The position numbers were made by a program, and so were the translations under genes. Shown here piece by piece: positions 1-39,899 of a DNA stretch of 64,000 bases (position 1 is its first letter; each line of letters begins with the position of its first letter). The notes below the pieces were generated by a model, which saw only the letters and a program-made list of their open reading frames with translations, had not been told where the DNA came from and did no database searches. The stretch is taken from positions 120,812-184,811 of the forward strand of contig BCKE01000065.1 of the NCBI GenBank assembly GCA_001600495.1. The letters run 5' to 3'. Source of the stretch: Pilasporangium apinafurcum (lineage: Eukaryota; Oomycota; Peronosporomycetes; Pythiales; Pythiaceae).

Positions 1-530
1 TTTGAGGAGGATTCATTGCTTGATTCTCTTCTTAATGCTCGGGATGTGAAACGCGTGCATCTTCGGAAGAAAGACATAAATGGCCTACGTTCCGTTGTCC
101 AAGAATCCAACACCATATTTTACAGCAAAACATTTCATGACATGACGGTGCTCGTATGCGACTATGTTGACAAAGATGACCTTCATCCCTATCGCACACA
201 TGGCCGGATTCGCCAGGACATGACGATGGGGTACGTTCTTCCAATTATTTCCCAGCCTTATTCTTTACTGTCACGAGTCATGTAATTTTTTGCTTCTGTA
301 GTATTGTGTTGGTACCTTATGTTAGCCCAGATGGCGTGCAGAGTGTGATTATGAAACAGTTTGCGTTCATCAAACATCATATACAGCATCTTCCTGCCAC
401 ACCGGAGCTGAATCAGGCCATCTTCAGGGACAGTATCTTACTAGGTCAATCAATTCGACATTGCATGTCGCAGCACCAATACTATATGCCAGGGAAGACG
501 AATCCGCAAATTGTTCGCTTGGACATTTAA
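1..530 (+). CDS. Group A coiled-coil/START-like (M96-type) protein, 3' part, member A1
   Basis: The gene enters the window already in frame, so its start lies to the left. Exons are <1..230 and 302..530, with a phase-2 intron (gtacgt...tag) at the same place as in the neighbour A2. The protein carries the family motif DYVDKDDLHPYR, followed by a conserved stretch ending in IMKQFAFIKHH that A2 repeats almost word for word. The visible part matches the second half of the START-like (lipid-binding fold) region of this family. Cellular role is unknown; the family is usually annotated 'M96 mating-specific' or bZIP-like in oomycetes (family knowledge, not shown here). The C-terminus is short, as in A2. 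Confidence 0.75.
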
Positions 531-1539
531 GTGTGGCGAGACTCGGCAGACTATGGTATAATAATCATATCTCGACTCGGGGCAGGATTGAGCTTTTGGT
601 ACATTCAGAAGCTCAACAAAAGTACCTTGATGGCGATGTGCTCACTGGAAATGAAATATCCCATTTTATAGACTAGCCAATTCACCAAAACGATTTTGTG
701 TCAACTACACTGACGATAAACATCGGAATAACGAATGTACTCAGAGCTTAAGAATGCTCACTATGGAGTTTGCGTTTGGAAGAATGTACTAGTACGCTAC
801 CACAGCACCGTATGGATCAAGCGTTTTACTCGTATGTGTAATCCTATTTGAATAATGGTCCCAATGAGCATCTGTATCGACAAATCGGAAGTATTATCCA
901 TTTACTTAGCAGCTTTATTCTGTGGAGAGCAGATGCCCATTGAATGAACAACGACGCCAACATATGATGAAGTCGACATTGGGATCGCATGGATGATTGG
1001 TGGAAGAATCTCCCAATGAGCATCAGCGTCATATCTCTTCTTCTCTATTTCAACCAACATTCAATTTGGTCAAGAAGAATGTTGGCTCGATTCACATTCC
1101 TTCCAAAAGAGTTAAAGCTTCTGAAAATACTATGTGGGAGTTCACTTATCTCAGGTGGCGTAATCTGGAAATTAGAGATGAACGTGATGAAGTGAAGACG
1201 GTAGATTTGACAAGAAGAAGCAAAAAAAAAAAAAACGATTGCAGGAAGAGCACAAAGAGAATATACACCGACGACTTGCTACTTCAGTGAGTGGAAGAGA
1301 CAAATGCGTTCGATCTCGTAGAGATCGAAGCGGCTCCTTCCATTGATGTTGGGCAGTGGATACTTTTTTCATGGCACAGAATGTTTGTTTCGGTGATGAC
1401 ATTTCCAGTACACGGTAGGCTCGTCATTGCAAAAGTCGAGTGAGAATCGAGAAGACGGTCCGTGAGGTGACGTAATGCTGCTTGAACTTAACTCGTAGCA
1501 CCAGAAACAGAAGAAAAGTAGAGGGATCTGACACTGTTC
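531..1539. other. Intergenic spacer between A1 and A2
   Basis: No gene with a convincing start, codon pattern or splice structure was found. A 13-bp sequence CCCAATGAGCATC occurs twice (near 862 and 1011), and a run of A lies near 1218-1230. The stretch may contain eroded copies of neighbouring genes but nothing alignable by eye. Confidence 0.4.
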
Positions 1540-3371
1540 ATGGAGGAAGAACGTCTCTTTCAGCTGCTGGAGGAGGCCGGAGTGGGCATGGACATCGATT
1601 TGGATACAACAGCGATCACCACAGCGGCATGTTCTGCTAGCACACCCGGACAGGAAAGTTCCACGACCAATAGCAGCAATTACGAGGAAGCGATGGATGA
1701 AATCGATTCGATTCTCTTCCAGGACCTGGAGAGTATGATGGTGGTGGATGACGCACAGGATAGTGATCGCCAATCGTATCAGCTCATGACACAGTCACTT
1801 GGGTCGGATATGTTCACACCTACAGAAGAAAACGACAGCAATGATCAAGACAGGACTCACACCAATGCCAATCATCATTTCGGTGATGATGAACAGCCAC
1901 GTTTCCACCCAACAATTGCAATGGGCGATGGGTGGGGCTTGCTGGAAGAAGCATCAGCTGCACGCGCAGATTTACCACTAGGTGATGATGATGATGATGA
2001 TGATGCTTCGCCAGAGTATGTACGTGGAAAACTTGCCGAATATCGATTCATTGACAATTCATATGAATCTGACGTGTATTCTTTTCGTAGCATGCAGCCG
2101 AATTGCTTCGTCGCGAATTGAAATTTTTAGAGGCACAGCGTGATTTCTTACACTTTAAAAAACAAGCAGCCGACGCTGTGCAGCATGCAGATGGTCGTGA
2201 GAGTGATGAGTCATATCGTGAAAAAGCGCTCGAAGAGCAAGAAAATCTAGAAAACGCGACACAATTGCGCCAGATGATGATGGAAAACATTATTCAGCAG
2301 CGACGCAATTGCCAAGACCTCGAGTTTCTCGTCATGCAGTCGCCATTGAATCATTATGTAAGTGTTCTATTGGGTTTGTTTCGCGACGCTATTACTACTA
2401 AACTCTTTACTGTGAACACATATTAGAGATTGTCGTTGATGACACCGATGGAATCCTACATCCATCTTGGCAAAGATCCATTCAAGAGGCGGGAGACGCT
2501 GCTCTCAATTCGAGATTCGAAAATTGCAGCAGCGAGACAATTTGTCGAGTACCAGGCGCGGTATATTGACCCCGACCGAGAGTTCTATTACTTGGACACA
2601 TTCGAAAAATTCGGCAAATTCTACACTGTGGATTTCAGCATCTCAAAACTATTGGACACGACAGTGAAAGCGGTCGCAGACGTGATTCTCGACCATTTTG
2701 TGACCACAAGCGATGGTATTTCGTTGATGATGGGCTTTGTGACAAACCGAGAGGTAAGCAAGATGCATGAATGATTGCTGAGATGACAACCTTCACTCAT
2801 TTTCCCTGCCTTTGCGCATTCAGTTTTTTGACGGCATTGAAGAAACATTCTTGAATGCTCGGATCGTTGAACGTGTTGATATCCCAAAGAAACACCTGAA
2901 TGACCGGGGGTTTGTGGTCCAAGAGTCCAATACTGCATTCTACATGAAGGTGTTTGACGGCATGACAGTGATGACATGTGACTATGTTGACGAAGATGAG
3001 CTCCATCCATATAGGCGAAGCCGCATCCGCAAGGACATGACTGTTGGGTACGTGCTGTTTCTGACGTTCCTTTGACCGTTGGGTTCATAACCGTTTAATT
3101 TGCGCAATCTTTGTATTGCTGATTTTTTTGTAGGATTACTCTAGTTCCACATATTGGAGTCGACGGCGTTGAGAGCGTCATCATGAAACGATTTTCGTTC
3201 ATCAAACATCATTTATATCATGTACCATTCACCCAAGAGCTTGTGCAGGCAATTTCTACGCGCGTGATTTTATGGGGGCAAGCCATCCGGTATTGTATCA
3301 CCCGTCGACGGAATACCAATCTTAAAAAAATCTGGACCAAGCGTAGCTTCCGTCACCGTATCCCTGCATGA
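1540..3371 (+). CDS. Group A coiled-coil/START-like (M96-type) protein, member A2
   Basis: Exons 1540..2019, 2091..2357, 2427..2753, 2824..3047 and 3134..3371 give a 511-residue protein. Residues 1-160 are acidic and low in complexity, ending in a run of eight Asp. Exon 2 encodes a charged amphipathic coiled coil that starts HAAELLRRELKFLEAQ. Exon 3 opens the START-like region with LMTPMESYIHLGKDPF. Exon 4 carries the family motif DYVDEDELHPYR, and exon 5 carries VIMKRFSFIKHH. The introns at 2020 and 2358 are phase 0 and match those of A3. A nuclear or signalling regulator is the usual guess for this family, but no DNA-binding basic region is visible. The start is the first ATG of the long open frame. 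Confidence 0.85.
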
Positions 3372-4138
3372 GTGAAAGATCTAATTGCTTCAAATAATTT
3401 ATTTATTTTCACACGAAGACAGTTGCGCTGGAGATTCGATTGCCGGTATCGTCCAAGAATTTGTTTGTTGACTGCTGATGAGACGAAACAGGTAATGCAT
3501 GTCTCTCTATCAAACATCCAGACGAAAAAGAAGGAGCGGCACATGCCACGGGTGCTCATCCACGTGCAGCAGGGGATAGTGGTCGTCAGCATTTGCCCAT
3601 CTGGAAGGCAAAGATTACGGTTGCTTGTTTGCTCCACCCATCTTTATCCAATGAAAGCAAGTAAATTTTATTTCTTGACCGTTTATTGGCAAATTGTTTA
3701 AACCGGAACACTAATTTCTACCAATAGCACATTAAAAAGGGTATACACAGAAAATAGAATGAATGCGTATATCACACATGAGTGAAGGTAGTATACCTGT
3801 CCTCCATTCTGACCAAATAAAAATTGACAAAAAAGGGTAAAAATCAAATATCTAATTCAATAAATTTTTTAAATGATATGGTACCAAATATTGTCAACCT
3901 AGGTTAGATCACCTAATCAATCCTGTACGGAATCAGAGTAGTTTGGGGTAAGGTTACTAGCATTTTGTGACCAAATTCCTCCTCTTTGCTGTTCAGTATA
4001 GGTCTGCTCTCGCTCTCCCCTCCTCTCCTCTCCTCTCAACCTCCACTGACTGTTCCTTCTTTTGTTCGAGAACGCATTTGGTGTTTCCTGAAGAGACAGA
4101 GGAAAGGAAAGAAAAATTGAGTTGCACGAGATACGAAC
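3372..4138. other. Intergenic spacer with CT-rich tract before A3
   Basis: There is no supported gene. The middle (about 3700-3960) is AT-rich. A pyrimidine tract of repeated CTCTC lies at about 4006-4050, 90-130 bp before the A3 start, and is the likeliest promoter or 5' leader signal. A 109-codon open frame at 3372-3701 has no family resemblance and is probably chance. Confidence 0.4.
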
Positions 4139-6237
4139 ATGACTTCCGCGCTTCCGGACGATTTAGTACTTGAATATGACCTGCTCCAGTTCGTGGAGAA
4201 CGACAGCACGCTTTTCACAGACCAGTGCCTAGCCCCAACATCGCCCGGGTCTCTCCAGGTATTCAACGCCGATGACTTGTTAGGTAACTGCTCCGTGGGT
4301 GTTGATCTTGCCACGAATGACGATACCACATATAAAGGAAGCCATCCCCAGTGTAACGAAGAACAGGGTCCTGTCGTTCAGAAAGAGAGCGACAAAAAAG
4401 AAGAACCTATACATACATCCACAGCCATTGAAGCCGGCAGCGACACGGACGTTGGCGATGATTTCTCATCATTCTTGATCGATGGCGAAGAGTTTTTGAA
4501 TGAAATGGAAAAGGTCGTAAGGCTAGAGATGGGAGCGTCTCCGGATATTCCGCACACGCCCGTTCATGACAGCGATCTGGATTTTGACTGCCTCACTGAC
4601 AACGACATCATGTCTTCTCCTTGTCCCAGTTCTTGTCAGAGCACGTGTCTTTCTGACTCGCCTAAGAAGGATATAAACAGCCAGATGAACCCACAGTGCT
4701 TAGAGAAACAGCAACAAGCGTGGCTTATGGCACAGACTATGCTTCTGGAAGCCGAGGCGAAGCAATCGACTTCTATACCTGCCTCTCCACCCTCTCTCTT
4801 GCAGCATCAATCGTCGTCCATTGATTTAACTACAAGTGAAGATGATGTCGATGAAGAAGAGGAAGTGGAGGACGTTGAAGTCATGGAAATACAGGACGAG
4901 AAAGATGATGACATCACTGAACAAGTACGTTCTCATCAGGTTGATCTCGATGTTCACTCTATTCTAATTCCATATTGTTGTGGCTCTGTATTGCATCCTA
5001 GAATGATGCAGAATTATTGGAGAAAGAAGCCAAGTACTTAGAAGCACAGGTAGACTACCTCGTATCACGGGCAAAATCTACCCGACCGCAACGCACCAGT
5101 ATCAAGGCAAAGCGCCGTGGCCGCGATCAAATTAAGCTATTGCAACCTGTAGTGCAAGACACTAAGATCCTAAACGAGCTTGTGTCACAGCAGCAAGTGT
5201 ATTTGGACAATTTCAAGGCCATGCTCGCGTTTGCGCCGGTTAACGATGTGGTATGTGCATTTTTGCATTCAACTTGATGATTAAATGGTAGTTGGTAGAG
5301 ATTGACGCGATGTCTTCTTATATACAATCACAAAATAGCGGCTAGCATTGATGACACCGATGGAAACGTATATTCATCTGGGACGAGATTTCAACGATCG
5401 ACGCCGCACGATTTTGGCGATGCGAGAAGAGAAGCTGGACATGACACATAAATACATTGAACACAAGGCGCAGGGTCTGAACCTCAACCAGCCATACCAG
5501 TACTCGGACATGTTTGAGAAGTTTGGCAAGAACTATTGCGTCAACTTTGCCATTTCCAAGTACGAAGGTGTGCATGTGAAGCAGGTCGCGCGCGCCATTT
5601 ACGAACAAATCGCAGGCAAGGATGAGGCGCTCGCCAATGCAATGGGGTGCATGACGATTCGTGAGTCTTATGATTCCATTCAGTGTAATTTCATGCACCA
5701 ACGGATCATCTCGAGTCTGAAATGGAACGATGAATTCTTGGATGACATGCCCGATATGGAATCAAATTCCATTTTCTACAACCGCTTTGATGGCAACACG
5801 GCCGTACTGGCCACAGATTACATTGACCAAGACGATTTACATCCGTATTTGGCATCCGATCGCATCCGAAAGGATGTTTCCAGCGGGTATGAAGATAATC
5901 ATTGTCTGCTAATATGTCTTTGTGTGTCTTTAAGTCTAACAAATATCTTCTTGTTCGTTGTTGCAGTGTGGTCTTGACGGGTCACGTTGATGCCGAAGGG
6001 AAACCGTATGTGGTTATGAAGCGGTTTTTGATGGCCAAGTTCCACATGTATCCGCACAAGATCAGCCAAGAAAAACGTGACAAATTCTTCTCCAAGATGC
6101 CCAACATGCACGACAAAATGAAGAGTTTGATCGTCGATCGGATAGCACGCAATGACTTTACACCTGGGACAGCGTGTTGCAATGGTGGCTCCGAAGCGGT
6201 ACACGTGCCACCACAGGAACTGCCCGTGCAGGAATAA
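4139..6237 (+). CDS. Group A coiled-coil/START-like (M96-type) protein, member A3
   Basis: Exons 4139..4924, 5002..5250, 5339..5886 and 5967..6237 give 617 residues. Residues 1-262 are acidic and Ser/Thr-rich, with a Glu/Asp cluster just before the coiled coil. Exon 2 is the coiled coil (NDAELLEKEAKYLEAQVDYL), closely matching A2. The START-like region begins LMTPMETYIHLGRDF and includes the motif DYIDQDDLHPYL. The exon that A2 splits in two at 2754-2823 is continuous here, so one of the two lost or gained an intron. The acceptor at 5001 was chosen over the nearby one at 5011 because only it keeps the frame open. Function is unknown; a regulatory protein is inferred from the family. Confidence 0.85.
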
Positions 6238-7498
6238 GTGAATCAGTGGCCAATTAATTCATATCGAATCCAATCTATATTTGCTCCTACCAAGACCAGT
6301 CCTTCTACTTCTCTTGGCTACTGGCTGGGCAAACGCATTTGTACTGCACTGATTGGGTCTCTATCGTGCTGGTCAACCTTCTTCCGCGTTCTGCAAGGCA
6401 ATACTGGCTGGACGTGCGTGCCAGATGAAGAATTCCTTTGTGCTTGTAAGCGCATGGATAGTAGAGGGGAAAAACAAGTAGCAGGTCTTGTAAAGAGGTC
6501 TTATGAAGGGAGACAAGCATTACCTGTAAAACTGTTGATATATTTTATTTCTCTATGCTGCCAAATATCTCTCGGAAATTGATTTAAGTATGTGTTGTTA
6601 CGCTGTTAAACATGAGAGCTTCCGCCACTTGCTCGACTTTTGTGACCAATCCACCACAACCAGCAAGAGCATGAGACTCATTGTAACAACGTGCCCGTAG
6701 CACAAACGAACCTCAACATCACTAGCCTCAGCTCACAGTCGCTCATAATCATATCCAAATGCATCAATGAGCAACTCAACAAAAGCACAGACACTGTGGC
6801 CATACAAAGTGCGAGGAGCCAATCGTCGCACAGTCGTTCCTTTCGGCGCATAATCTTGAGGCACTGCATGGGCATAATCATACTTGCACTTTACCACCAA
6901 CGGAGTACAGTGAGACATTACTAAATTTATATTTCAACCAACGCCCATCCTCTTCTAGACACACGAGACCAACAAACTAAATTTTACTAAGCACTCTGAT
7001 TTGGCGATCAATTGCAATACAACTATGCTAATGAAGGAACACTTGGTTGATAGTGTCTCTCAAGCCATCGCAATTACATATGAGAAAAAACACTATCGAA
7101 AATCAGATGAACTCACTTCCTCTGGTAACAACAGCCTTTTTCTTTTTTCGCACCAATCCAGACTTGTGACAGTATAAAATATAAATTTAGCCATTCTCTT
7201 CAAGCATAATCACAGCTCACTCATCCTCAGTCTGCTTCGACATGTTCGTTCAAAAAACCTTTTTTATTAAATATTATTTTAAATTTAATTTATTAATTTT
7301 TAATAAAACTTTAATATTTACTTTATAAATTATTGTAAATGTTTAATTTAATATTTTCAGACGCGACAGGATTACGCAACAAGACAGGCTTCTGATAGGC
7401 CATTTGTGGACCTCACGCCCAGCAGCTACAACGCCCAGCAGCAGCGACGTGGGTGTGAGAGGAAGAAGAAGCAGCGAAATTCCATCTCCATCACCGCA
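6238..7498. other. Intergenic spacer with extreme AT block upstream of A4
   Basis: No supported gene. Positions about 7255-7360 are almost pure A/T and end in TTTTCAG at 7360-7366, so this may be an intron in the 5' leader of A4. The open frame of A4 continues upstream of its first ATG (7499) to about 7406 without an ATG. Confidence 0.4.
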
Positions 7499-9086
7499 AT
7501 GGAAGAACTACGCCAGCCACACGCAGAAGAAAAGAATTTACAAGAGAAACAAAGCGATCACACAGCAGTGATGCACACAACAGTGCCGCAGTTGCCAACA
7601 TATTGTCTACCGACAAGCGCTATTCTCGACAAACACAAACATCAGCACCCACATACATCACGGACATTACCTCGTCTACTGCCCAAGCACGCTACAACAG
7701 ACGCTCCAACGGCATCTGCGTCATCCCCTGTCTCTTTATCCACAGTAGCGACTGCCACTGCCGCCTGCAGCCACGCAATGGCATCTATTTTGATGGACTT
7801 TGGCAAATTTTCGGCGGCAGCAGCCGCTGCTGTTGGTGGCACTGTCTGTGGTCGTAGCTTCACGTGTGGTTCCCAGAAACGCGCGAGAAGCGATGCAGTG
7901 ATGGATGTAGAGAAGCATCCACGCAAGCGCAAGTGGAGGAAACCCACCTATTTAGTTCGTAAGGTCGGTATGCGGTTTGACAATTGCTAGAAAGGAAGTC
8001 GTCATTACTTTTCTCAACTAACTCTGTTAATGTTCTGTAGGAAGAACGCGATGTGTTGCTGGAGCAAATTTATGAATTACAAAATCACATCGAATTGCTG
8101 CAATACCGCACAGGCACAACTGATTGGCGGTTAAAAGACAAGCAACTGCTGCAGAAGGAGATGAGCAACCACGTACTGCGTGAGGCTGTGCGGAATCATC
8201 AATTCGCGCTGATCGGTGCGCAATCTGCTCTTTCTGAAGCCACGGTAAGGATGCTTTCATATCAACCTCCATATGGATTTATATAAATTCAATCATCTGA
8301 TTAACTTATATGAATTAGCTTAAAATCCAGGAAACCTACCCGTTGAGCACTTATATTCACTTGGGTTTGGACTGGACGCAGCGCCATGAGACACTAATGT
8401 CGCTAAAATCTCAGAAAATCCATGAAGCCGTACAGTTCCTGGCCAAACGGACACAATTTCTCACGGACCCAGCACAGGAACATTCCGAGATCGCACGGTT
8501 TTCTACACCCAGTGGCGACTATTGTGCGATCCATTTCGATGTCATCCCATTGGATGATACAGCGCTCAAGAATGTGCAACATGCTTTTGACGTTGTCTGC
8601 TTCTACGTGCGGCACATGGATCCTACGTCGCAAGAATCGCTCAAGAACATGGTGCCATATGATAACAGCAGCGAGAATAACAGCATCGTCCATCGACGCG
8701 TGAAAATGGCTGATGTCGGTGGTGTGTTGACTGAATCAAATTTTGTGGTCTTTGCGCAGTGCAGTGAGCACTGTGGCGTGATCGTCATAGACTCGGTTGA
8801 TGTAGATGAGCTCTATCCATATCGACAAACTCCATCGACTTGTCGGCAGGATGTCAGTGCTGTATTGTCCATCACGACACAGCCACGACGAGTCAAGCAA
8901 CATGACGGCAAGTGGGTGGATGAGCAAGTGCTGGTACTCACGCGCTGGGGTGCACAGAAATTATATCACAATGCAGAGATGACAGTGCCTCCCGCAGTGG
9001 TGCAGGAGATCAAACAGAGATTGCATGAAGTTCCCGATTCGCTTTTACATGCGCTCAAGCAGCTTACAGTGCCTGTAGATGCGTAG
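7499..9086 (+). CDS. Group A coiled-coil/START-like (M96-type) protein, member A4, with bZIP-like basic stretch
   Basis: Exons 7499..7963, 8041..8244 and 8319..9086 give 478 residues. The N-terminal third is Thr/Ser/Ala-rich and ends in a basic stretch (KHPRKRKWRKPTYLVRK) directly before the phase-0 intron. Exon 2 continues as EERDVLLEQIYELQNHIELL, a leucine-rich coiled coil. Together these look like a basic region plus zipper. The START-like region begins LSTYIHLGLDWTQRHETL and carries DSVDVDELYPYR. A second in-frame acceptor at 8330 would shorten exon 3 by four codons. The gene converges on A5 (128 bp between stops). A DNA-binding role is inferred only; the classic bZIP Asn/Arg pattern is not complete. 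Confidence 0.85.
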
Positions 9087-9213
9087 GAGAAGTGTTTGTA
9101 TACATTTGTGTTATTGTGATAGGCATCTATTCAATGCAAAATGGTCGAGAACGGCTTGTACCAATGCCAATAATGAAGATTAGTAAGATGATAGGGATCT
9201 ATTTGTTTCATTT

Positions 9214-10825
9214 TTACAGTGACATCTTCGTTATTTCTTCATTCTGTGATGAAGGTATGGACATGTGACGATGACTAGTTTTCCTGGACATCACATGAAT
9301 GAGTGAGTCTTTGACAATCTTGACCATGGCATCGCCAACTTGATCCGCGGCATGTGACACGCGGTCCATCACGTGCTGAGGCACGTCGAACGCGGGTTTG
9401 TGCAGCTTGAGGAGCGTCCACCGCGTAAGGACGACTATCAATTCCTCATCCTCTTCGTTGTCATCTTTGTCATCGACTCTGTGTCCAAAGGAGGCGGACT
9501 GTCCGACATCTGCTTGAAATCGGTGACTCGGTTGTTTCTTCTCTTTCTTCAGCCGATAGGACGTTACCATCATAAGCGATGTGATGTCTTGCCGCAACCG
9601 CTCTAGTGGTCGATACGGGAACAATTCGTCGTCATTAATAAAGTCGAACGCCATGATACCCAATTCCAGACACTCGCTATCCTTCTCCATGTGTTCAGCG
9701 CTGTAAAACTCAGTAAACATCACGTTATTCATTTCCATCTGCACGTCTAGAGCCAGCTGCGTGAGCAATCGGTGCTGGGAAATCGTGTTGTCCCAATCAT
9801 CATCATCCTCACGAATTGTAATGTCACCCACCATCTCTGAGATGCTGATTTCCAAGTTCGATGCGAAGTGCAGCAGAACATCAAACACTTGGCGAGCACT
9901 CTGCAGACCTCGGAATGGTGTGATGTCGAACCGCATGGCGTGAAATTCACCCCGAACGCTTTCAAATTTCTGACTATCGCTGAACGCTTTCGTGATATCC
10001 ATGAACCGACTGCGTTCACGAAGAAATTCGATTGCATCGCTCAGCTTTTGCTGCTTCATCGATAATAACGTTGCACGACGACGAACTGGGTCTTTCCCCA
10101 AACGGATAAATGTCTCGAATGGACCGCTCGACTGCTCCCTCTACATGCGTACAGCAACAACAAATAAATGAATAAAAGCGTTACTCAGTCAGATAAATAT
10201 GAGTCATGGGATTGTCATTACCATAAATTGCGTCATGATGGAGATAGTGTTAGCAAATGCAAGTCGCTGGCCGCGGATAGTGTCGTGCAGTGTCTGATTC
10301 CAATGGTACTTGTGCTGTATTGCCTGGTGTTGTTGTCTTAACACACTGCGAGCATGGAAATCATGTTTCATGGTCTCTAGCCGTTCCAATTCTGCCAGTA
10401 GTACTTGCTTTTCTTCCTATACGAAATGCCATCATTTAAATCTTTCAGATATGAACACGAGTTAGATGGTCATCCCACTCTACCTTGCGCATATAATACG
10501 TGCGTTTCCGTGTCTTTGGCTGCACACTTCTTCTTATTTTCTTTGGTGCTTCATCCTCATCTTCGGTGGACGATATGCTGCGTGTTTTGCGCGGATGGCG
10601 TTTCGTTTTATTGCCGTCAGGCTGGTGACGAGCTACACGCTGTTTCCCATTGGAGCTGCTGGTTGAAAGATGTTCATGGGTTGTGAATGATACAGCTGGG
10701 TGTATGGACTGCACCTGCGCCGCTACATCCGCCGCCTGCGTGAGCGAGAGAAGCATATCGTTGGACGTTCGATGGGGATTCTTGACAGGGGTGAGCGGCA
10801 TCATCTTCTGATCTGCAATGGCCAT
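9214..10825 (-). CDS. Group A coiled-coil/START-like (M96-type) protein, member A5, with bZIP-like basic stretch
   Basis: On the minus strand the exons are 10825..10484, 10416..10222 and 10140..9214, giving 487 residues. The N-terminus ends in a basic run (RSVQPKTRKRTYYMRK), then the phase-0 intron, then a coiled coil starting EEKQVLLAELERLE. The START-like region begins FETFIRLGKDPVRRRATLL and has the motif DFINDDELFPYR. It then runs through an acidic loop (DDKDDNEEDEE) and a LIVVLTRWTLLKLH strand much like A4's VLVLTRWGAQKLYH. A4 and A5 share the longer C-terminus missing from A1-A3 and are an inverted, convergent pair. The role is unknown beyond the family inference. Confidence 0.85.
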
Positions 10826-11437
10826 CAACAACCTAATTATGTGGCATAAACAAACAGAAGAATCCACCCAAAAACACAACTTTCGGGTTTTTCAAAACTA
10901 AAAACCCAAAACTTGCCTGTAATATTCACTGGAGGTTTGTAATTTATCGTAATATACGGAGGTCACATAGACTGAAATAATTGTCGCATTTTTTTTAGCA
11001 GTATTTCTAACAATTTTTTTTTGCGCAATTATTGGTACACCCTATGTGTAACAATGACGTACGCTGATTGGTCGAAAAACTGAGTACTGAAAGATGATTG
11101 GCTGAAATCCGAAACTTGAAACTTGGACGGTCGTGGAACTTGAGGAGGAAGTAGTGAGTTGTTGGCAAAATGAAAAGTGAATTAGATGGAGGACTTAGTT
11201 CGCTAGCACTACATCTAAGCTCCCGTTGAATGCATGTTTTCCTAATCTGATTACGATCATCTTTCTACTTTCTTCCTTTACACATGTATTTATATGCAAC
11301 TATGTATTTCTGACTATTTTCCCTCTTAATGTATTAAAATGACTTTAAGGTATGTAATGTCGTCTGACCTCGAACGCAAGGTCAGGCACATGCCGACGCC
11401 ACGCTTGTCCCTTGCGTGCGAGGTCAGGCATGTGTTA
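10826..11437. other. Intergenic spacer left of the transposon
   Basis: No gene. A short inverted repeat GGGTTTTT/AAAAACCC lies at 10885-10907, and ATTGG (CCAAT-box-like) sequences lie near 11065 and 11096, on the side of the A5 promoter. A stronger hairpin at 11364-11427 is listed separately. Confidence 0.4.
11364..11427. repeat. Inverted repeat beside the transposon
   Basis: Two 17-bp arms, 11364-11380 (CTGACCTCGAACGCAAG) and 11411-11427 (CTTGCGTGCGAGGTCAG), are reverse complements with one mismatch, separated by 30 bp. They lie 10 bp outside the left terminal repeat and are not part of the TA-flanked element. Confidence 0.7.
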
Positions 11438-11494
11438 CACTATGGACAAAACATTTGCAAGTCAGGGACAAAATTTAGGGAACCTCGGGACAAA
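11438..11494 (+). repeat. Left terminal inverted repeat of the transposon
   Basis: Begins CACTATGGACAAAAC and is repeated in reverse complement at 13408-13466. Two copies of GGGACAAA inside it could be transposase binding sites. Confidence 0.9.
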
Positions 11495-11664
11495 TTTGCA
11501 AATAAAAATGGGACAAATGAAATGCAACTTGGGGAGAAAACTTTGCAATCCGCGTCATAGCGGATCAGTAATCTGAAGGAAATCTGTCCACTGAACCATC
11601 TCGAAAGCGAGGGCGCCCCCCTCTGTTACCATCGCGACTTCCATCTCTTTCGCCAGAGGTAGTT

Positions 11665-13293
11665 ATGGATCCAGAACTCCAAACAATACATCTGGAATCA
11701 GCCAGAGCCCGTCAGCGGATGGCGAAATCCCAGGAAATTCAGCAAAAGCAAGCTGAAAGAGCGAGAACTATTGCTCACTCTCGGGCCCGCCGATCCATCC
11801 ATCAGCTTGCTCAAGCCGCCTTTCATTCATCTCAGGTTTCTGAGAAAAAAGCGGCGCAGCTCCGGAAGCGTGTTGAGGCAAATGCAGCTGAACAGCAACA
11901 AATTGATCAAATTGTTGTAGCGATTGAAGCTGGCGATAACCTTGAAAATTTCCCTCCGAATTTGATGCAAAAAGCATTGACACTTTGTGCTTCGAGGAGA
12001 CCTCGTGTAACTAGGGAAGAGCATGACAAAATGACAATGCTTCAGGGCAAACTCTCCCAACAAGACATTGCTTCTGTTGTTGGAGTTTCTCCATCAACGG
12101 TAAGCAGGCATCTTCATGGTCCATTTCTGGAAGGGCAATCATCGAGTCAACATCACAAGAGTGGGCGACCGTGCAAATTGACCGATGAAATGCTATGGGC
12201 TGCAGCACGATTTCAATTCCTTTTCAATACGAGGTGTCTAGCGGAGACTGCCGCGTTTATCAACCTGACATTTGGGATAAAGATTTCCCCTAAAACAATT
12301 GGCCGACACTTGAAACATCGATGCGGCTTCCGCTTGGGCGACTTTCGACAATTCCCCGAAGAACGGAATTCGATTCGTTCAGTCGAACTTCGCTTCGAGT
12401 ATGAAAGAGATATGCAGGAAAAGTACGGCCCGAATACTCTTTATCACGCTATCTATTTCGACGAGATGTCGATGTCACGGCCGACCAAGCGAAAAGCGTG
12501 GTCTATATGCGGATGGATCCCATGTGTTGCTGGTGAGAGTCATAAGGAAAGCCGCGAACACATTTCGCTCCTTCTATCAGCCAGTCCTGAACTTGGCGTT
12601 GTCTACTACGAAATTGTAGAAGGATCAGTCACCGGTCAAACTGTCTTGGCCTTCTGCAAGGCGATGGTTCGGGTATACGTCGAGAAGTTTGAACCAGCGC
12701 ATCCTGATCAATCTCGATCGCACCAGCGAAGAGCTTTCATCATGGATAATGTTCGTTCGCATCATTCGTCTGCTTTGAAAATCTTCTTCGAAGGTGATAC
12801 AATGTCAAAGCTAATTGCGTTGGAGTTTCTGCCGCCATATTCACCGTTTTTAAATCCAGTTGAAGAGGTATTTTCATTAGTAAAAGGTAGAATCGCTCGA
12901 AAGAGAGCTTCTTCCTCTGAGACGGACGAAAGCAAAGCTTTTATGAAACAAAGCCTCGTGGAAGAAATTTTGAAGGTGTCTGATGATGATATAAAGAGCT
13001 TCTTTTTTCATGTTATCGAGTTTCTGAAGATGGCAAAACACAAACAACCAGTGTTCACACAGCAGATGTACGAGAACTCACACGTTGGCGATGACACCAG
13101 CTATTGTCCTCTTCTGCCTCACAATGTGGAACTACTTTTGAATTCATATCTTCCTAGGACTTACGACGAGTTTACTCCAGAGATGAATCGAGTGGTGGAG
13201 AATACTTATAAGTGTCGACGCCTCACTGCCGAGTTAATCGACGGTCTTGTTCAAGTCAATGATTTGTCTACTTTGAATAATCGTCAAGCATAA
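11665..13293 (+). CDS. Tc1/mariner (IS630-related) DDE transposase
   Basis: This single-exon gene of 542 codons lies inside the terminal repeats. The N-terminal 110 residues are a basic, Gln/Ala-rich helix. A helix-turn-helix (LSQQDIASVVGVSPSTVSRH) follows for terminal-repeat recognition. The catalytic core shows Asp266 in IYFDEMS, Asp361 in IMDNVRSHHS and Glu400 in PPYSPFLNPVEEVFSLVK, which are the three metal-binding residues of DDE_3-type enzymes. There are 38 residues between the second Asp and the Glu, longer than the 34 of Tc1 itself. The protein would cut and paste the element at TA sites. No stop or frameshift was seen, so it may be active. Confidence 0.92.
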   Translation: MDPELQTIHLESARARQRMAKSQEIQQKQAERARTIAHSRARRSIHQLAQAAFHSSQVSEKKAAQLRKRVEANAAEQQQIDQIVVAIEAGDNLENFPPNLMQKALTLCASRRPRVTREEHDKMTMLQGKLSQQDIASVVGVSPSTVSRHLHGPFLEGQSSSQHHKSGRPCKLTDEMLWAAARFQFLFNTRCLAETAAFINLTFGIKISPKTIGRHLKHRCGFRLGDFRQFPEERNSIRSVELRFEYERDMQEKYGPNTLYHAIYFDEMSMSRPTKRKAWSICGWIPCVAGESHKESREHISLLLSASPELGVVYYEIVEGSVTGQTVLAFCKAMVRVYVEKFEPAHPDQSRSHQRRAFIMDNVRSHHSSALKIFFEGDTMSKLIALEFLPPYSPFLNPVEEVFSLVKGRIARKRASSSETDESKAFMKQSLVEEILKVSDDDIKSFFFHVIEFLKMAKHKQPVFTQQMYENSHVGDDTSYCPLLPHNVELLLNSYLPRTYDEFTPEMNRVVENTYKCRRLTAELIDGLVQVNDLSTLNNRQA

Positions 13294-13407
13294 TACAGCA
13301 TTTCAATTAACTCCTGTTAGTTTGTGGAGTAGTTTTCGGCTTGATAGTGAAAACAGGATCAAAATGGACAATATTGCAATTTCAGATGAGTTCTTAATTT
13401 GCAATAT

Positions 13408-13466
13408 TTTGTCCCGAGGTTCCCTAAGTTTTGTCCCTGACTTGCAAATGTTTTGTCCATAGGGTG
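13408..13466 (-). repeat. Right terminal inverted repeat of the transposon
   Basis: Reverse complement reads CACCCTATGGACAAAAC and continues as the left repeat with a single mismatch over 54 bp. Confidence 0.9.
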
Positions 13467-13867
13467 TAAGGTGATTTATGTTATTTTTCAATAAGCCAAC
13501 GAATATAATTCGTTGAATGACACTTAGATTACTCGATGAAAAGAGGCAAAATACGTAAGTAATCGGATCTCCAGGTCTCTACGTGATACATGTGGTCATC
13601 GTTGGCTCATTTCTATCCCTTCATCGTATCACTTGATTTGTAGAAAATTTTCTTTGATTAGTACATTCTTTCCCGATTTGTGATTGCGACCTTCACTTTC
13701 TTTCTGTCAAGTAAGCACGCAGGTGCTCCAACTTTCTTTTCGGCTATCGTTATTGATTGGCGTTGTTTCACTGGGATTTGTTGTTTACCGTCTCTCAATT
13801 TTGCTAAAAACGAAACGGTGGTTCAAACCACTTTAGGAAGAAACCTTTTTTTCTCCCATAGTGACAA
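13467..13867. other. Spacer between the transposon and B1
   Basis: No gene seen. GGCTCATTTCTATCCC at 13602-13617 partly resembles an oomycete initiator (GCTCATTYY) but lacks the CAWTTT part. It lies about 260 bp upstream of the B1 start. Confidence 0.35.
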
Positions 13868-15335
13868 ATGAGTGTTGCGTGGCATCCCCCTCCTCTTCAC
13901 TCTTCTTCTTCTTCACCGCTGACCAGACAGTCAACGAAACGCAGGAAGCAAACAATAGCTATGGCACTCGCCGTCCATCCTTCCTCTTATGTGAACAAGC
14001 GTAGTGACCATGACAAGAAAGATGATGATGTTTTCATTAACGGCTCCTACAAGGAACATCGGAAACCTGCTCTATCCGCGACGGTAGGGAGCTCTTCGTT
14101 TATGTTTAGCTTTCCGATCTGCATGGATAATAAAATAACGTAATGCTATGTCTTGAAAATTTTTTAGCATGAGCTCAGGCAATTGCGAGAAGATGTGGCG
14201 CACATGGAGCAGCAAATGCAGTCGCTACGCATGAAATGGCGGACGCAGTTACCCGACCAACGCGTGTTGCTTCGCGCTTGTGAAGCCGCCAAGGCCAAGT
14301 GGATGTCGATCCAGACGGAACAGCTCAATCTTCAGTTAAAAGAGCAATTATTACAACAACAGCTCTATCTGGCGTCACTTCAGTACATGATCACGCAGTC
14401 ACCACTCTTACAATCATCAAAAAGCAAGGAGATCTTTGAAGGCATGCACAGCTACAGTCGACTAGAACAGTCGCTGTCGATGACAGAACGTGCGAAGGCG
14501 CTGGAAAACCACTGCAAGATGGGGCTGCGCATCACACCGGCGCTGATAAATCGCTTTATGCAGGAGCACGTCGCTAAAGCCACGACCAAAGTCCCACTTT
14601 CTTACACGAGTGTCATGGCGGACGAGAACTACACGTATTTCGCCAATTTGCTGGTCTGCAAGATCCCGCATCCGTCCTTACAAGAAACGGCGGAAGCGAC
14701 CATGACGTATATCTCGGAAATGGGTGCTGAGTTAGAGAAACACGTTGGTATTTCCAGCTATTTAAAGGTTCGTTATCTCTGCTGATACGTTCTTTTATTG
14801 TCTTTGACCATACGATTATATCGTTGTAAATATTATAGAACATTCAGCCGCTTCAAGACGGGTTTGCCTACCAGCAACTTTACTACCGTAATGGCCCAGA
14901 CTTTGTCGCGAAGCTCAACACGACGTTTGCGTACCACTTTACTCCCACTCAAACCATTGTGATGATCGATTTTATTGATGATGATGATCTATATCCGACG
15001 CGAATGACTGGCGAAGCTGGTGAAGTGACTCGTGATTCCGTTGTCGCGTAAGGATGGCGTTTCTTAAATATTCTTCTTAGTAGTGAGTGAACAACTAACG
15101 GAAGTTCTATGTACTGTAATTGAACAGGATGATGTTGAGTATGGTCAAGGACCCTATCACGGGCCAGGATCAGATAATGCTGCAAAGAATGACGGCCATC
15201 CGTTACAATCTCGCACCACACTCAGCCACATTGCATCACGAAGTCAAGTCCACATTGCCGTGGTTCAATGGGGATCTCCTCATGGAAGTGATTTGTCGCC
15301 ATCTGGACCAACGACAGCGAACGCAGCTACAATAG
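13868..15335 (+). CDS. Group B coiled-coil/START-like protein, member B1
   Basis: Exons 13868..14083, 14168..14767, 14839..15047 and 15128..15335 give 410 residues. A short Ser/Lys-rich N-terminus with SYKEHRKPALSAT precedes a phase-0 intron. The coiled coil starts HELRQLREDVAHMEQQM and contains LNLQLKEQLLQQQLYLASL. The START-like part carries DFIDDDDLYPTR and ends TLPWFNGDLLMEVICRHL. The same intron position before the coiled coil and the same acidic-Pro motif tie it to group A despite low overall similarity. B1 has two introns in the C-terminal half; B2 and B3 each keep one of them. Function is unknown. Confidence 0.83.
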
Positions 15336-16703
15336 CTGGTAGTATTTGTCAGTGGTTTAAGTTTATCTATACTCTAAGAGGGAGTAGCGAGAGAAAGGAG
15401 AACAAAGGTGCTGTACGCGTAGATGAACGCGATGAAGTCACAAGCTGACAAGTTGACCATAATGGTCAATGGCACACATTATGTACCATAAATTGGCTAT
15501 TTTTACAGACCAAATTGGTTAGAAATGGCAAAACATGGCTATTTGGTTTTTGGCCAATAGTGGGACAATGAGATGCATTGCGCGCAAGCAATTTTGGAAT
15601 GATTACGGGGTAGAGGTAAGGTTTCGTGTGTTGACAATTGAGGTGGAAAGTTTTCCTAACATACGCTTTTTTTGTTTACTTCACTATGCTATAATTGGTG
15701 CTAATATTGAAACCCCTCCGGATAATAATTAGAGCATAAAATTTTTTCTTGTGTTATTACTGAGTGGTAGATTTCAGCTGCCTCACAAATAACGCTCTTC
15801 TCAACGTTCTTTCGAACACAATGTTTCATGGGTACTTGGTCGATATGATGGAAAGCGGCTGTATCGTCACTTATAAACCCTGTCTCCAGAGCGGAATGAT
15901 CTCAACACACGTTAGCCTCCATCCTCACCCTATTCCATTTTTCAGTTTTTTTAACCTAAAAGACAAAACCGGGTATAAGAGCCTAAGATGCGGGGATGTA
16001 TATTAACCAACCCAGAATAAGGTGTAAGATGATGAGTAAGCTCGCCAGTTTTTGTACACATCAACTTTAAAATCCGAGGCGGCAATCAAAATACACACAC
16101 CATAGAAATTGGTTGGCTGTGCACAGTATTGTCTGCATCTGAATTACTTGGCTCAAAAACAGTGTTTCGCATAATATTACTGATATACCAGGATAGATGT
16201 GGGAAAGCGCTGGCTAGTGTAAGGAAGCAAATACTGTTAGTATCGATTCGGGTATACTCAATATTTTTGTAAACTTTTCCGTTTAACGAGATTATATTTT
16301 TTTAATCCAATTGATAACACAAGTAAAAGAATAAATTACGTCTATCGGTAATTTATTGTAGGTTGTCATCATTGAATTAGGCAACTGCACTTCACTTTCG
16401 TGCTTCGTGATTGCGCGGCTGGTGCTGGTGTCGTCAGAGTAAGCAGAGCACTTTATTGCTCAAGTCCTGTCCTTACGACTAAGTGGCCAAGAGAAGAAGA
16501 AAAAAATCTACCAACGCTACTCATTTAGTCAATCAGTCAATCAGTCACTCACCCAAGTCAACCTCGACATCTTATCGCATTGTGAGATCACTAGCAGAGG
16601 GAAATATAATAACACCATCGTATCTCTTCACTTATCTGATCTGATCCAAGTCAAACAAGCTCACTACGGACATTTTGATTCGTATCCACTCACAAGACCA
16701 AGC
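15336..16703. other. Long spacer between B1 and B2
   Basis: No supported gene in 1.37 kb. There is a perfect palindrome TTGACCAT-A-ATGGTCAA at 15453-15469, about 120 bp past the B1 stop, and AT-rich sequence around 16250-16350. Short repeats of CAATCAGTCA/CAATCAGTCACT near 16530-16550 lie on the B2 promoter side. Confidence 0.4.
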
Positions 16704-18166
16704 ATGGAAGCGTTTCAACACACCATTCGACCTGAATGGTCGAATTTCCCGCATACAATCTCACCTTCTTCATCGTCTACGTCGTCGAATTCATCAATGG
16801 AATCACTAGTCGCCCCACTCAAGCGCGAGCAACTACCACTACCACCTCCACAGTCTCTGCCATCATTGGTTTCAATGGCCATGTCTAACAACCCATCAAC
16901 GCACAAGTATCAACCGCCAAGCCAGTTAACTCTCCGTCGCGACGTAGACATTTTCATTACGGGCAAATACAAGCAAAACCGCAAACCAGCACCCACTGCC
17001 ACGGTATACAGACTTGATTCGGCTATTGTAAACTCTCGTAACTTGAACAATGTTGCTCATCCTTCTCTTTCTGCACTTTAGCATGAACTTCGACAATTAC
17101 GTGAGGATGCCGCCAATATGGAACGCGAGATGCAGACACTTAAGCGAAAATGGGCGACGCATTTACCTGATGAGCGTCTGCTGCTCAGCGCCTGTGAAGC
17201 CGCCAAGGCCAAATGGATCTCGTTACAAGCCGAACAACTCAACCTGCAGCTGAAACAGCAATTATTAGAACAGCAGCTCTATCTAGCGTCGCTGCAACAT
17301 CTGCTCACAGAATCACCACTACTCCAGCCGTCAAAAAGCAAGGAAATATTTGATGCCATCCACACATTTGTCCGAATAGACCCGGAATTGACCATGGCCG
17401 AACGCCAAGATCAACTCGAGGGTCATTGCGAAATTGGACTGCGCATCACACCGTCGCTGATGCGTCGCTTTGCGCAGCGCCATGTCAGTTCAGCGACAAC
17501 GACAACACCATTCTCCCACACGAGCGTCATGGCCGATGGCAACTACACATACTTTGCCAACGTATTGGTCTGTAAGATCCTCCACCCGTCACTGCTAGCA
17601 ACCACACAGGCGGCCATGACGTACTTTGGGCAAATGGCAGCAGAACTGAAGAAACACGTTGGAATCTCCAGTGATGTCCAGGTAAATTAAAGACACTGCG
17701 AGACAATTTGAAGTGACAGAAGTGCTTATTTGTCTCTATTTCATGTTTTTAGGACATCCATCCGCTACGTGACGGCTATGCCTATCGGCGACTGCGTTAC
17801 TCAAATGGATCGGATTTTATAGCGACGCTAAACACGACGTTTGCTGTGCAAATGGCAAGCTCCCACGCAGTGGTTGTGGCCGATTTCATTGACGAAGACG
17901 ACCATTACCCTTCCCGAACAGCGGACGGTCTGAGGTTGATCCGTGATTCTTGCGTCTCACTATACATGAATACGATCCAGGACCCCGTGACAGGTCAAAA
18001 CCAAGTGCTACTGCAACGGATCACAGCAATTCGGTACAATTTACCCCCGCATTCGGCGCTATTGCATCGCGAAATTACGTCGACACTGCCGTGGTTCAAT
18101 GGCGACATCCTCATGGAAGTGATTTGCAAGCAACTAGACCAGCGCCAGCATCAGCAACTCATGTGA
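16704..18166 (+). CDS. Group B coiled-coil/START-like protein, member B2
   Basis: Exons 16704..17003, 17082..17681 and 17753..18166 give 437 residues. It is closely similar to B1: FITGKYKQNRKPAPTAT before the first intron, then HELRQLREDAANMEREMQ and LNLQLKQQLLEQQLYLASL in the coiled coil. The signature DFIDEDDHYPSR is followed by TLPWFNGDILMEVICKQL. The 600-nt coiled-coil exon has exactly the same length as in B1. The last B1 intron is absent. B1 and B2 are tandem duplicates; B2 and B3 are convergent. Role unknown. Confidence 0.85.
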
Positions 18167-18390
18167 TAAAGAAATGCTCAATGTCTTTGTTGAAGGACAA
18201 GTTCACTTAATAATTATATGGCCAAGTAAGGCTGCAAGTAGTTGATGTAATAAATGCGAGGATAGCAAGAGTGTTGTTAATGAAACATGATGGCAATTTA
18301 GCATCATATAAATCCCTGACAACAACGCTTTAGGCACAAACTGATCCATACAATCTTGATCTAAAACTAAATACTTCCAAACATTACTAT

Positions 18391-19684
18391 CTACCCGGTA
18401 AGCATCTTCAGCCGATCACATACCAATTCCATGTACAAATCCCCGTTAATGACTGAGATGGTCGCGTTGACCTCACGATGCAGTCGGGAGGAATGGGGTG
18501 GAAGATTGTAGCGATGGACCCGGAGCCTTCGCAGCAACACACAGCGCTGGTTCGTCTCTGCGTCGTGCACGTACGTCAGCATCAGCCTACAACCAATCAG
18601 CAATAAAAATCATCAACCATCCATTCGTAGCCATCAATAGATTAAATAAAAACAGATAACGCACCCACTACACGGCTCGATGCGGAGCTGGTCAGGACTG
18701 AATGGGTATTTGACATCCTGCTCGACAAAATCGGTCACAAATAGCGCCTTTTCTTCATTGCTGAGCTCTGACATGAATGCTACGTGGGAGACTTGTCCTT
18801 GAAAATCACCATTTTTCCGCTCAACGACGCAGTAATAACCATTTGGAGTCAGTGAGTGAACCTGTTCGACATTTGTCATCACTCCGAGACGGGTCTTCGC
18901 CTCAAAGTGCAGCGATCCATACGAAGCCACCACTGCTTCGTAGACTTGGGGTAATGAGACATTGGGGAATTTGCACATAAACACATTCGATACCAGTGAG
19001 TAGCAATCGAACGCCATGACGCTCGTGCGAGAGAACGGTACCAACCCACTCATGGTATCAATAAATTCGTTCGTGAAGGCATCCATGACCGTAGGCAGTA
19101 CACGGAATCCCACGGTAAATCGATTCTGAAGTTTGTCGATACGTTGCGCATCACTTGCATCCTCTTCTGTGAGTATGAGCTGGGTGTGCAGTCGATCAAA
19201 CATCTCTTTGGCGGTCCGGGTGATGGACCATAGCGGCGCATCCGTAAGTCTTCGTTGTAAAGATGAAAAATAGAGTTGTTGCTGTAGTAATTGCTGCTTC
19301 AATTGGGTGTTGAGTGCTTCAACGTGTGCAGTGACGGTCTTTTGCTTGGCGGCTTCACAGGCGACGTGTCGTACGTGTTCATCGGGTAGTGCAGTTTTCC
19401 ATTTTTCCCTCAGCACGCTGACCTGTTCGTTCAGCACTTTGACTTCCTGCCGCAATAGTCGAACCTCTTGCTATTTCCACAATATTGAGATAAATAAATA
19501 AATAAACAAGCATGCATCCTCGCATTGCTGCACCATATCTTACAGATGGTGGGATCGCGGGTGATTTGTGTGGACGAGATGGTGGTGATCCAAGTGGGGT
19601 TTTGTGGAGTTGAAGCTCCTCGTTCGTGTTATTACTGGGGTCTGTGGTGGTCATTTCGGTGGATATGGAGCTACTGGGAGCCAT
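18391..19684 (-). CDS. Group B coiled-coil/START-like protein, member B3
   Basis: On the minus strand the exons are 19684..19544, 19470..18665 and 18586..18391, giving 380 residues. The N-terminus is short and Pro/Ser-rich. The coiled coil after the phase-0 intron begins QEVRLLRQEVKVLNEQV and contains LNTQLKQQLLQQQLYFSSL as in B1 and B2. The signature is more diverged (DFVEQDVKYPFS). It lacks the middle intron of B1/B2 but has the last intron of B1, at the same point and phase. The start ATG is the first in the open frame; an additional upstream exon cannot be excluded. Confidence 0.8.
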
Positions 19685-39661: not shown

Positions 39662-39899
39662 GGAGTGGACCACTAAATTTATGTGATCTACACAATTATG
39701 TATACAATATTTCTATTGGACAATATTATATTTATATTAGCCAATAAAATTCGTGAAAAGGATATGTAGCCATTTCAGATCGAACATCTATTTTCACTTG
39801 ATATAAATAGCAGGATAATAGTTTTGTTGTGGCAACAAATAGTTCCTTTTGGGATGCATCTCGGTTGTGTTTGATCGAGTAGCAGCAGTAGTGTGTGCG

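What the first reader, a model, noticed from the sequence alone, without database searches (positions are those of the whole stretch)
1..19684. Eight-gene array of a coiled-coil/START-like family in 20 kb
Seven complete genes and one partial gene share one plan: a variable N-terminus, an intron, a coiled coil and a START-like region. Two subfamilies occupy separate blocks (A: 1-10.8 kb, B: 13.9-19.7 kb) and each ends in an inverted, convergent member. The array therefore grew by tandem and inverted duplication. A block of rapidly expanding, lipid-fold-plus-coiled-coil putative regulators is the most distinctive biology in the window.
Basis: partly seen in the sequence, partly recalled or inferred. 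Interest (0 to 1): 0.7.

Follow-up and report, generated by a model that had tools for sequence, protein, structure and literature searches.

The report
Giant array of START-zipper regulator genes
The eight genes are one end of a run of about 44 related genes that probably make paired regulator proteins with a lipid-pocket domain, a layout known from plant gene switches; what they do is not yet tested.

Summary
The eight genes are real and homologous, but the finding is the right-hand end of something much larger. Three protein searches of the window's own genome (merged by hand) give 57 START-like loci. Of these, 44 lie on this contig between 3.2 and 140.3 kb (3 of them fragments or copies with stops), and 6 more lie near the end of contig C87.

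The C-terminal domain reaches no Pfam cut-off and has no convincing PDB sequence relative. A template-free model of A4 nonetheless matches CERT START domains (best E 1.9e-7, target TM 0.57-0.65 for the top 19). A and B are homologous by profile comparison.

All 48 coils examined share a leucine zipper. In 33 of 33 resolved members of the main clade, a basic segment ending [TS][HYN]xx[RQ][KRQ] directly precedes it. All 8 of 8 members of the A0-A2 and B clades lack it.

'Rapidly expanding' is not supported in the window (B1/B2 dS 1.7-2.5).

Best reading: dimeric, ligand-sensing transcription factors of bZIP-like ancestry, with basic-less paralogues as partners or dampers. DNA binding, ligand and function are inferred.

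The parts
1..530 (+). A0, last two exons (1-230, 302-530); 5' exons lie left of the window (about C65:119530-120811). Basic-less, acidic N-terminus.
   Evidence: splice model; upstream ORFs; no basic tail
1540..3371 (+). A1, exons 1540-2019, 2091-2357, 2427-2753, 2824-3047, 3134-3371; 511 aa
1540..2019 (+). A1 exon 1: acidic (net charge -36 in 160 aa), an Asp run close to the zipper; no basic segment
2091..2357 (+). A1 zipper/coil exon
2427..3371 (+). A1 START-like region (three exons)
4139..6237 (+). A2, exons 4139-4924, 5002-5250, 5339-5886, 5967-6237; 617 aa; exon 1 net charge -49, no basic segment
5002..5250 (+). A2 zipper/coil exon
5339..6237 (+). A2 START-like region
7499..9086 (+). A3, exons 7499-7963, 8041-8244, 8319-9086; 478 aa
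7922..7963 (+). A3 basic segment RKRKWRKPTYLVRK at the end of exon 1, directly before the zipper exon
8041..8244 (+). A3 zipper/coil exon
8319..9083 (+). A3 START-like exon
9214..10825 (-). A4, exons 10484-10825, 10222-10416, 9214-10140; 487 aa, convergent with A3
10484..10522 (-). A4 basic segment QPKTRKRTYYMRK, directly before the zipper exon
10222..10416 (-). A4 zipper/coil exon
9214..10140 (-). A4 START-like exon; predicted START fold
   Evidence: best model pLDDT 70.7, pTM 0.71; CERT START top hits
11437..13465 (+). Transposon between blocks A and B (edges approximate): DDE_3 transposase 11665-13293 with inverted ends of about 72 bp, 92% alike; inside the array but not part of the family
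13868..15335 (+). B1, exons 13868-14083, 14168-14767, 14839-15047, 15128-15335; 410 aa; no basic segment at the zipper; START-like region from about 14396
16704..18166 (+). B2, exons 16704-17003, 17082-17681, 17753-18166; 437 aa; no basic segment at the zipper; START-like region from about 17310
18391..19684 (-). B3, exons 19544-19684, 18665-19470, 18391-18586; 380 aa; no basic segment; convergent with B2; START-like region 18391-19242

Best explanation
The window shows the right-hand end of a roughly 137-kb array of paralogous genes for dimeric, ligand-sensing regulators. Each protein has an N-terminal tail, a leucine zipper, a second helical stretch and a START-fold domain. In most members, including A3 and A4, a short strongly basic segment runs into the zipper, as in bZIP proteins: two zipper-paired chains would grip DNA, and a lipid-like ligand in the START pocket would change stability, pairing or activity, as in plant HD-ZIP/START factors. 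In A0, A1, A2 and B1-B3 the basic segment is absent, and A0-A2 carry a strongly acidic first exon instead. These members most likely pair with basic members through the zipper and act as non-DNA-binding partners or dampers. Shown: homology, the array, the zipper pattern, presence or absence of the basic segment, and a START fold for A4 by model. Inferred: nuclear role, DNA binding, ligand binding, hetero-pairing.
For: Array: 44 of 57 genome loci on one contig at 3.2-140.3 kb. START fold: template-free A4 model, top 19 PDB hits all CERT START, best E 1.9e-7. The B3 model is weak (pLDDT 47.6), yet its top 16 hits are also CERT START. A-B homology by profile, probability 97.9. Zipper: of 48 coils, position 6 is Leu in 48, position 13 Leu in 46 and Met in 2, position 20 Leu in 45 and hydrophobic in 48. 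Basic segment: 33 of 33 resolved main-clade members, net +2 to +10 in 20 residues; 0 of 8 in the A0-A2 and B clades, net -9 to +3. In 17 of the 33, segment and zipper lie in one uninterrupted reading frame. The C15 relatives have an SARRHRCRKK-type basic region, and bZIP_1 or bZIP_2 is their nearest Pfam family (E 0.0018 and 0.026, both below cut-off). Purifying selection: B1/B2 dN 0.25-0.28, dS 1.7-2.5. Precedent: in plant HD-ZIP IV factors, ceramide binding by START affects turnover and dimer level (passages of PMC10126025).
Against: No array protein scanned reaches a Pfam cut-off for bZIP or START. For two coil pieces scanned alone the nearest Pfam models were unrelated (SLX9 0.17; DUF2508 8.9e-4), not bZIP. 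The canonical bZIP Asn/Arg pair is not kept in the array: the Arg position holds His or Tyr, Asn in one (my alignment by eye). C-type members have a Pro inside the zipper (11 of 48 rows, position 11). Only one of five A4 models was confident (70.7, 58.3, 38.2, 37.1, 36.7), and its superpositions on CERT are loose (rmsd 6.0-9.4). No expression, localisation or DNA-binding data; the pocket was not inspected. Basic-less members could be non-nuclear proteins.
Confidence: 0.55

Rival explanations
1. Cytoplasmic coiled-coil lipid carriers. The proteins are dimeric START lipid-transfer or membrane-contact proteins (like CERT), and the basic segment binds acidic lipids or RNA rather than DNA.
For: Closest fold match is CERT, a ceramide carrier. 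Pfam finds no DNA-binding domain in the array proteins scanned. Six of the eight window genes lack the basic segment.
Against: The basic segment joins the zipper without a gap in 33 of 33 resolved members, which is bZIP geometry. The C15 relatives look like bZIPs. No PH, FYVE or other Pfam domain reached its cut-off in the seven complete window proteins.
Confidence: 0.2
2. The basic-less members are merely degenerating or repurposed copies; only the basic members regulate anything, and there is no damper function.
For: Their zipper core is weaker: 33 of 40 core positions hydrophobic against 195 of 200. Three loci elsewhere in the array carry internal stops.
Against: Long intact frames with proper introns in A1, A2, B1-B3. 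B1/B2 dN well below dS. The same lack is shared by whole clades. Zipper positions 6, 13 and 20 are hydrophobic in 8 of 8.
Confidence: 0.2
3. An ordinary oomycete bZIP cluster with an overlooked START domain, already implicit in genome annotations.
For: PMC11267843 (passages) reports clustered bZIP genes in P. infestans and bZIPs with the conserved Asn replaced by Cys, Val or Tyr. PMC11062530 (two passages) mentions four genes with START-like domains tied to Phytophthora sporangium development.
Against: PMC11267843 tested 30 transcribed bZIPs genome-wide and says no enlargement matched those of plants or animals; 'START domain' occurs 0 times in its main text. The array segment is not the Asn/Cys/Val/Tyr type. 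PMC11062530's passages treat START-like genes as lipid transport, not as zipper factors.
Confidence: 0.25

Closest known systems
Plant HD-ZIP III/IV transcription factors (e.g. ATML1, PDF2)
   Same: DNA-binding segment, then leucine zipper, then START domain; the START ligand controls dimer level and turnover (PMC10126025, passages)
   Different: No homeodomain found by Pfam in the window proteins; a short basic segment instead; no sequence comparison with plant proteins was made
Oomycete bZIP factors, including Val/Cys variants
   Same: Basic segment running into a zipper; the C15 relatives of this family look like bZIPs with Val/Leu at the Asn position
   Different: Array members lack the Asn/Arg signature, carry a START fold, and score below Pfam cut-offs
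CERT (STARD11) and other START lipid-transfer proteins; PYR/PYL receptors
   Same: Predicted helix-grip fold
   Different: About 10-12% identity in the CERT alignments, no Pfam START match, fused to a zipper
Designed acidic zippers (A-ZIP; recalled, not from a call)
   Same: Acidic stretch in place of the basic region beside a zipper (A1, A2)
   Different: Natural genes; inhibitory action untested
Phytophthora M96 tandem family
   Same: Large tandem family in an oomycete (PMC5999078, passages)
   Different: M96 proteins are described as secreted, His-rich and Gly/Ser/Tyr-rich; not this layout

Membership tests
START domain | helix-grip fold | tested here: met
   A4 model top 19 PDB hits all CERT START, best E 1.9e-7, target TM 0.57-0.65. 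For B3 only a weak model; other members by homology
START domain | match to a START sequence profile (Pfam) | tested here: not met
   no START hit in 7 complete window proteins or 37 START regions
START domain | binds a hydrophobic ligand | not testable with these tools
   needs biochemistry
bZIP | leucine zipper of at least three heptads | tested here: met
   positions 6, 13, 20 hydrophobic in 48 of 48 coils examined
bZIP | basic region contiguous with the zipper | tested here: met
   33 of 33 resolved main-clade members (window: A3, A4); 0 of 8 in the A0-A2 and B clades
bZIP | Asn-x7-Arg-x9-Leu signature | tested here: not met
   array segment ends [TS][HYN]xx[RQ][KRQ], with His/Tyr at the Arg position. 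C15 pair keeps Arg-x9-Leu but has Val/Leu for Asn (alignment by eye)
bZIP | Pfam bZIP above cut-off | tested here: not met
   none for the array proteins scanned; C15 pair E 0.0018 and 0.026, below cut-off
HD-ZIP III/IV | homeodomain before the zipper | tested here: not met
   no Pfam homeodomain in 7 complete window proteins or the 6 proteins and pieces
Phytophthora M96 family | secreted His-rich, Gly/Ser/Tyr-rich protein | tested here: inconclusive
   description from PMC5999078; layout differs here, but no M96 sequence was at hand and signal peptides were not predicted
DDE_3 (IS630/Tc1-mariner-like) transposon at 11.4-13.5 kb | DDE_3 transposase with terminal inverted repeats | tested here: met
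   DDE_3 E 5.5e-16; about 72-bp inverted ends, 92% alike

The most novel reading that the evidence does not exclude
One chromosomal bank of more than 40 genes (50 loci if the C87 cluster joins it) encodes a combinatorial set of lipid-gated zipper transcription factors together with their own natural acidic-zipper inhibitors (A0, A1, A2 and two genes left of the window). Each pair of paralogues would give a different ligand and DNA specificity, and the microbe would read lipids of its surroundings or host with it.
Probability: 0.18. Interest if true: 0.85.

Novelty: new variant of a known kind. Interest (0 to 1): 0.55.

Why it matters
START-regulated zipper transcription factors are known from plants. 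If this family works the same way with a different DNA-binding segment, lipid-gated transcription arose more than once. The array would also be an unusually large local expansion of regulator genes in a small eukaryotic genome, with old copies in the window and fresh homogenisation further left. Basic and basic-less members side by side make a natural test of inhibitory zippers.

Tried and rejected
M96 mating family: considered from memory as the known oomycete tandem array, rejected after reading passages of PMC5999078.

Relatives elsewhere: none in viral contigs (16 pattern matches, none confirmed). No oomycete genome other than the window's own is searchable here, so spread across species is untested. 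The bacterial/archaeal collection was not scanned.

C87 as the continuation of C65: C87 members fall inside a clade of C65 genes, but the contig ends show no overlap. Left open.

A 34-bp stretch shared upstream of the 14k and 39k genes: 33 of its letters were not found at other places in the stretches held, up to 7 mismatches.

Simple duplication of 14k/39k: thought less likely, because 1182 bp are 99.8% identical while both flanks, N-terminal codons included, differ. This looks like gene conversion.

B structure: the low-confidence model was used only as weak support.

Limits of counts. The 57 loci are a hand-merged union and a lower bound; some matches of good genes also showed a stop where they run into an intron. 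The tree holds 47 of the 57; left out are 3 stop-bearing or fragment loci on C65, 3 C65, 2 C87 and 1 C11 loci that were not fetched, and 1 short C10 piece. Of the 57, 33 main-clade, 8 basic-less and 2 C15 genes were judged for the basic segment. Left out: 58k, 85k and two C10 genes (exon 1 not resolved), the stop-bearing gene at 57k (it shows the segment in frame), and 9 loci not fetched or without a coil hit. Splice junctions were chosen by hand among printed candidates; for 73k and 92k the donor giving the basic segment was not the top-ranked one. The first residue of the 111k coil was filled in by analogy. In one search the minus-strand members were read on the wrong strand; one search replaces it. 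One search gave nothing usable.
Full report
WHAT WAS CHECKED. Gene models for the eight genes were built from the sequence with GT-AG introns of 67-88 bases. Seven are complete. A0 is the 3' part of a gene whose 5' exons lie just left of the window. BLASTP links A members to each other, B members to each other, and A to B weakly. A comparison of an A-type profile (37 START regions) with a B-type profile (3 B proteins and 2 relatives on contig C15) gives probability 97.9 and E 4.9e-13 over 194 columns. So the observation of one shared plan holds.

THE ARRAY IS MUCH LARGER. The window is C65:120812-184811 of a 36.5-Mb genome in 136 contigs. Searches of that genome with the START regions of A2 and A4 and with the B2 coil-START protein give, after merging by hand, 57 loci: 44 on C65 between 3.2 and 140.3 kb, 6 on C87 (81-98 kb of a 102-kb contig), 4 on C10, 2 on C15 and 1 on C11. 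Three of the 44 (56363-, 59448-, 72362+) are fragments or carry internal stops. No further member was found in the window beyond B3 (tblastn, E up to 0.01). Other genes interrupt the array, for example ORFs that look like an eIF4A-type helicase and a D-threonine-aldolase-type enzyme left of the window (names by eye, no search run).

SUBFAMILIES. A tree of 47 of the 57 START regions (midpoint root for drawing only) gives three main groups: B1-B3 with the C15 pair (93/94); A0, A1, A2 with two genes at C65 106k and 111k (95/94); and a 37-row clade with everything else, including A3 and A4 (98/98). Nearby genes tend to be alike: Mantel rho 0.41, p 0.0005, and 15 of 38 members have their best match next door against a shuffled mean of 2.0. 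The best matches of A3 and A4 are far away in the array, so their convergence is not shown to be an inverted duplication of one gene. B3 is the outgroup of B1/B2, so an inverted duplication remains possible there.

AGE. B1/B2: dN 0.25-0.28, dS 1.7-2.5. B2/B3: synonymous sites saturated. A0/A1 (one exon, 74 codons): dS 1.84. 75k/77k: dS 0.95-1.2. These are old copies under purifying selection (five pairs tested). Recent events were seen only in the left part of the array. Genes 14k and 39k share a 1182-bp tract at 99.8% whose two flanks differ, a gene-conversion pattern. A stretch at C65 17728-18298 is identical in inverted form to 29818-30388. 'Rapidly expanding' does not describe the window.

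FOLD. Neither Pfam nor the PDB by sequence (best E 0.033 to a ribosomal protein and 0.29 to an upper collar protein) knows the domain. AlphaFold2 without templates, on six window-only rows, gives for the A4 exon pLDDT 70.7 and pTM 0.71; the other four models were poorer, mean pLDDT 58.3 down to 36.7. Its 19 best PDB matches are CERT START structures (best E 1.9e-7, probability 1.00, target TM 0.57-0.65, rmsd 6.0-9.4), followed by a carotenoid-binding protein and PYL receptors. The B3 model, made by reading one 26-codon intron as residues, is poor (pLDDT 47.6, pTM 0.40), but its 16 best matches are again CERT START, with low TM 0.21-0.36. START for A is well supported; for B it rests on homology plus this weak agreement.

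ZIPPER AND BASIC SEGMENT. Among 48 coils, position 6 is Leu in 48, position 13 Leu in 46 and Met in 2, and position 20 Leu in 45 and otherwise Met, Ile or Phe; positions 10 and 17 are mostly hydrophobic. Directly before the zipper, 33 of 33 resolved main-clade members carry a basic stretch ending [TS][HYN]xx[RQ][KRQ], with net charge +2 to +10 in 20 residues. None of A0, A1, A2, 106k, 111k, B1, B2, B3 does, with net -9 to +3. In 17 of the 33, segment and zipper stand in one open frame without any splice choice; the remaining junctions were picked by hand. Exon 1 of A0, A1 and A2 is acidic (net -29, -36, -49), while that of A3 and A4 is basic (+10, +12). The C15 relatives have a recognisable bZIP-like basic region with Val or Leu at the usual Asn; bZIP_1 or bZIP_2 is their nearest Pfam family but below cut-off. 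In A1, 106k and 111k, zipper position 17 is Arg (strings), which would be expected to disfavour self-pairing (inference).

MECHANISM. The most likely reading is a dimeric transcription factor with a START ligand domain. The precedent is plant HD-ZIP IV, where START-ceramide binding protects the protein and affects dimer level (passages of PMC10126025). Basic-less paralogues would be partners or dampers. PMC11267843 (passages) proposes a similar blocking role, as one possibility, for oomycete bZIPs with altered Asn. That paper tested 30 transcribed bZIPs, reports clustered bZIP genes, says no expansion was as large as in plants or animals, and has no 'START domain' in its main text. PMC7273347 (passages) describes a bZIP joined to a PAS domain, another oomycete bZIP with a possible ligand domain.

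WHAT IS NOT KNOWN. Size (36.5 Mb) and G+C (45.6% in the window) would fit an Albugo-like oomycete (A. candida: 34.5 Mb assembled, about 43% G+C; PMC3206522, passages), but this was not tested. No other oomycete genome could be searched, so the family may be widespread and merely uncharacterised; PMC11062530 (two passages) does mention START-like genes in Phytophthora. In the listings of the paper searches and the passages read in seven papers I saw no description of a START-zipper array in oomycetes. The library holds open-licence papers only, and a key bZIP paper (PMC3811335) was not held.

VERDICT. A real, large and internally varied array of START-zipper proteins, ordinary in its parts and unusual in its combination and size. 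It is a new variant of a known kind (ligand-domain zipper factors), with function inferred.

Noticed in passing
window 11437-13465: DDE_3 transposon with about 72-bp inverted ends inside the array; one other full-length near-identical copy on C15 and one split copy on C8, so probably recently mobile.
   Followed up: partly
C65:13775-14956 and 38919-40100 (L028, L029): 1182-bp tract 99.8% identical between two paralogues whose flanks differ: looks like gene conversion in the array.
   Followed up: yes
C65:17728-18298 and 29818-30388 (L063, L075): Identical inverted copies; equal scores of the START loci at 18.6 and 28.9 kb suggest the block is longer, but the rest was not fetched.
   Followed up: partly
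C65:13538 and 38724: A 34-bp non-coding stretch identical upstream of the 14k and 39k genes, outside the conversion tract.
   Followed up: partly
L001/L002, C65:108118-109410 and 115728-117482: One long ORF and a set of three overlapping ORFs with TnpB/Fanzor-like zinc-finger endings (by eye, from memory), containing masked bases.
   Followed up: no
C-type genes at C65 3-43 kb, 85 kb and C87: Intron number differs within the C-type subfamily: 85k appears to keep both introns, 42k and two C87 genes one, others none, suggesting stepwise intron loss (by ORF layout only).
   Followed up: partly
window 47889-48674 and 49479-50297: A Peroxidase_2 gene (E 3.7e-50) with a similar-looking neighbour 0.8 kb away, perhaps a secreted tandem pair; the second was not scanned.
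   Followed up: no
window 30820-32346, 36602-38086, 60094-61953: FYVE protein, aspartyl protease and GMC oxidoreductase genes in the rest of the window.
   Followed up: no
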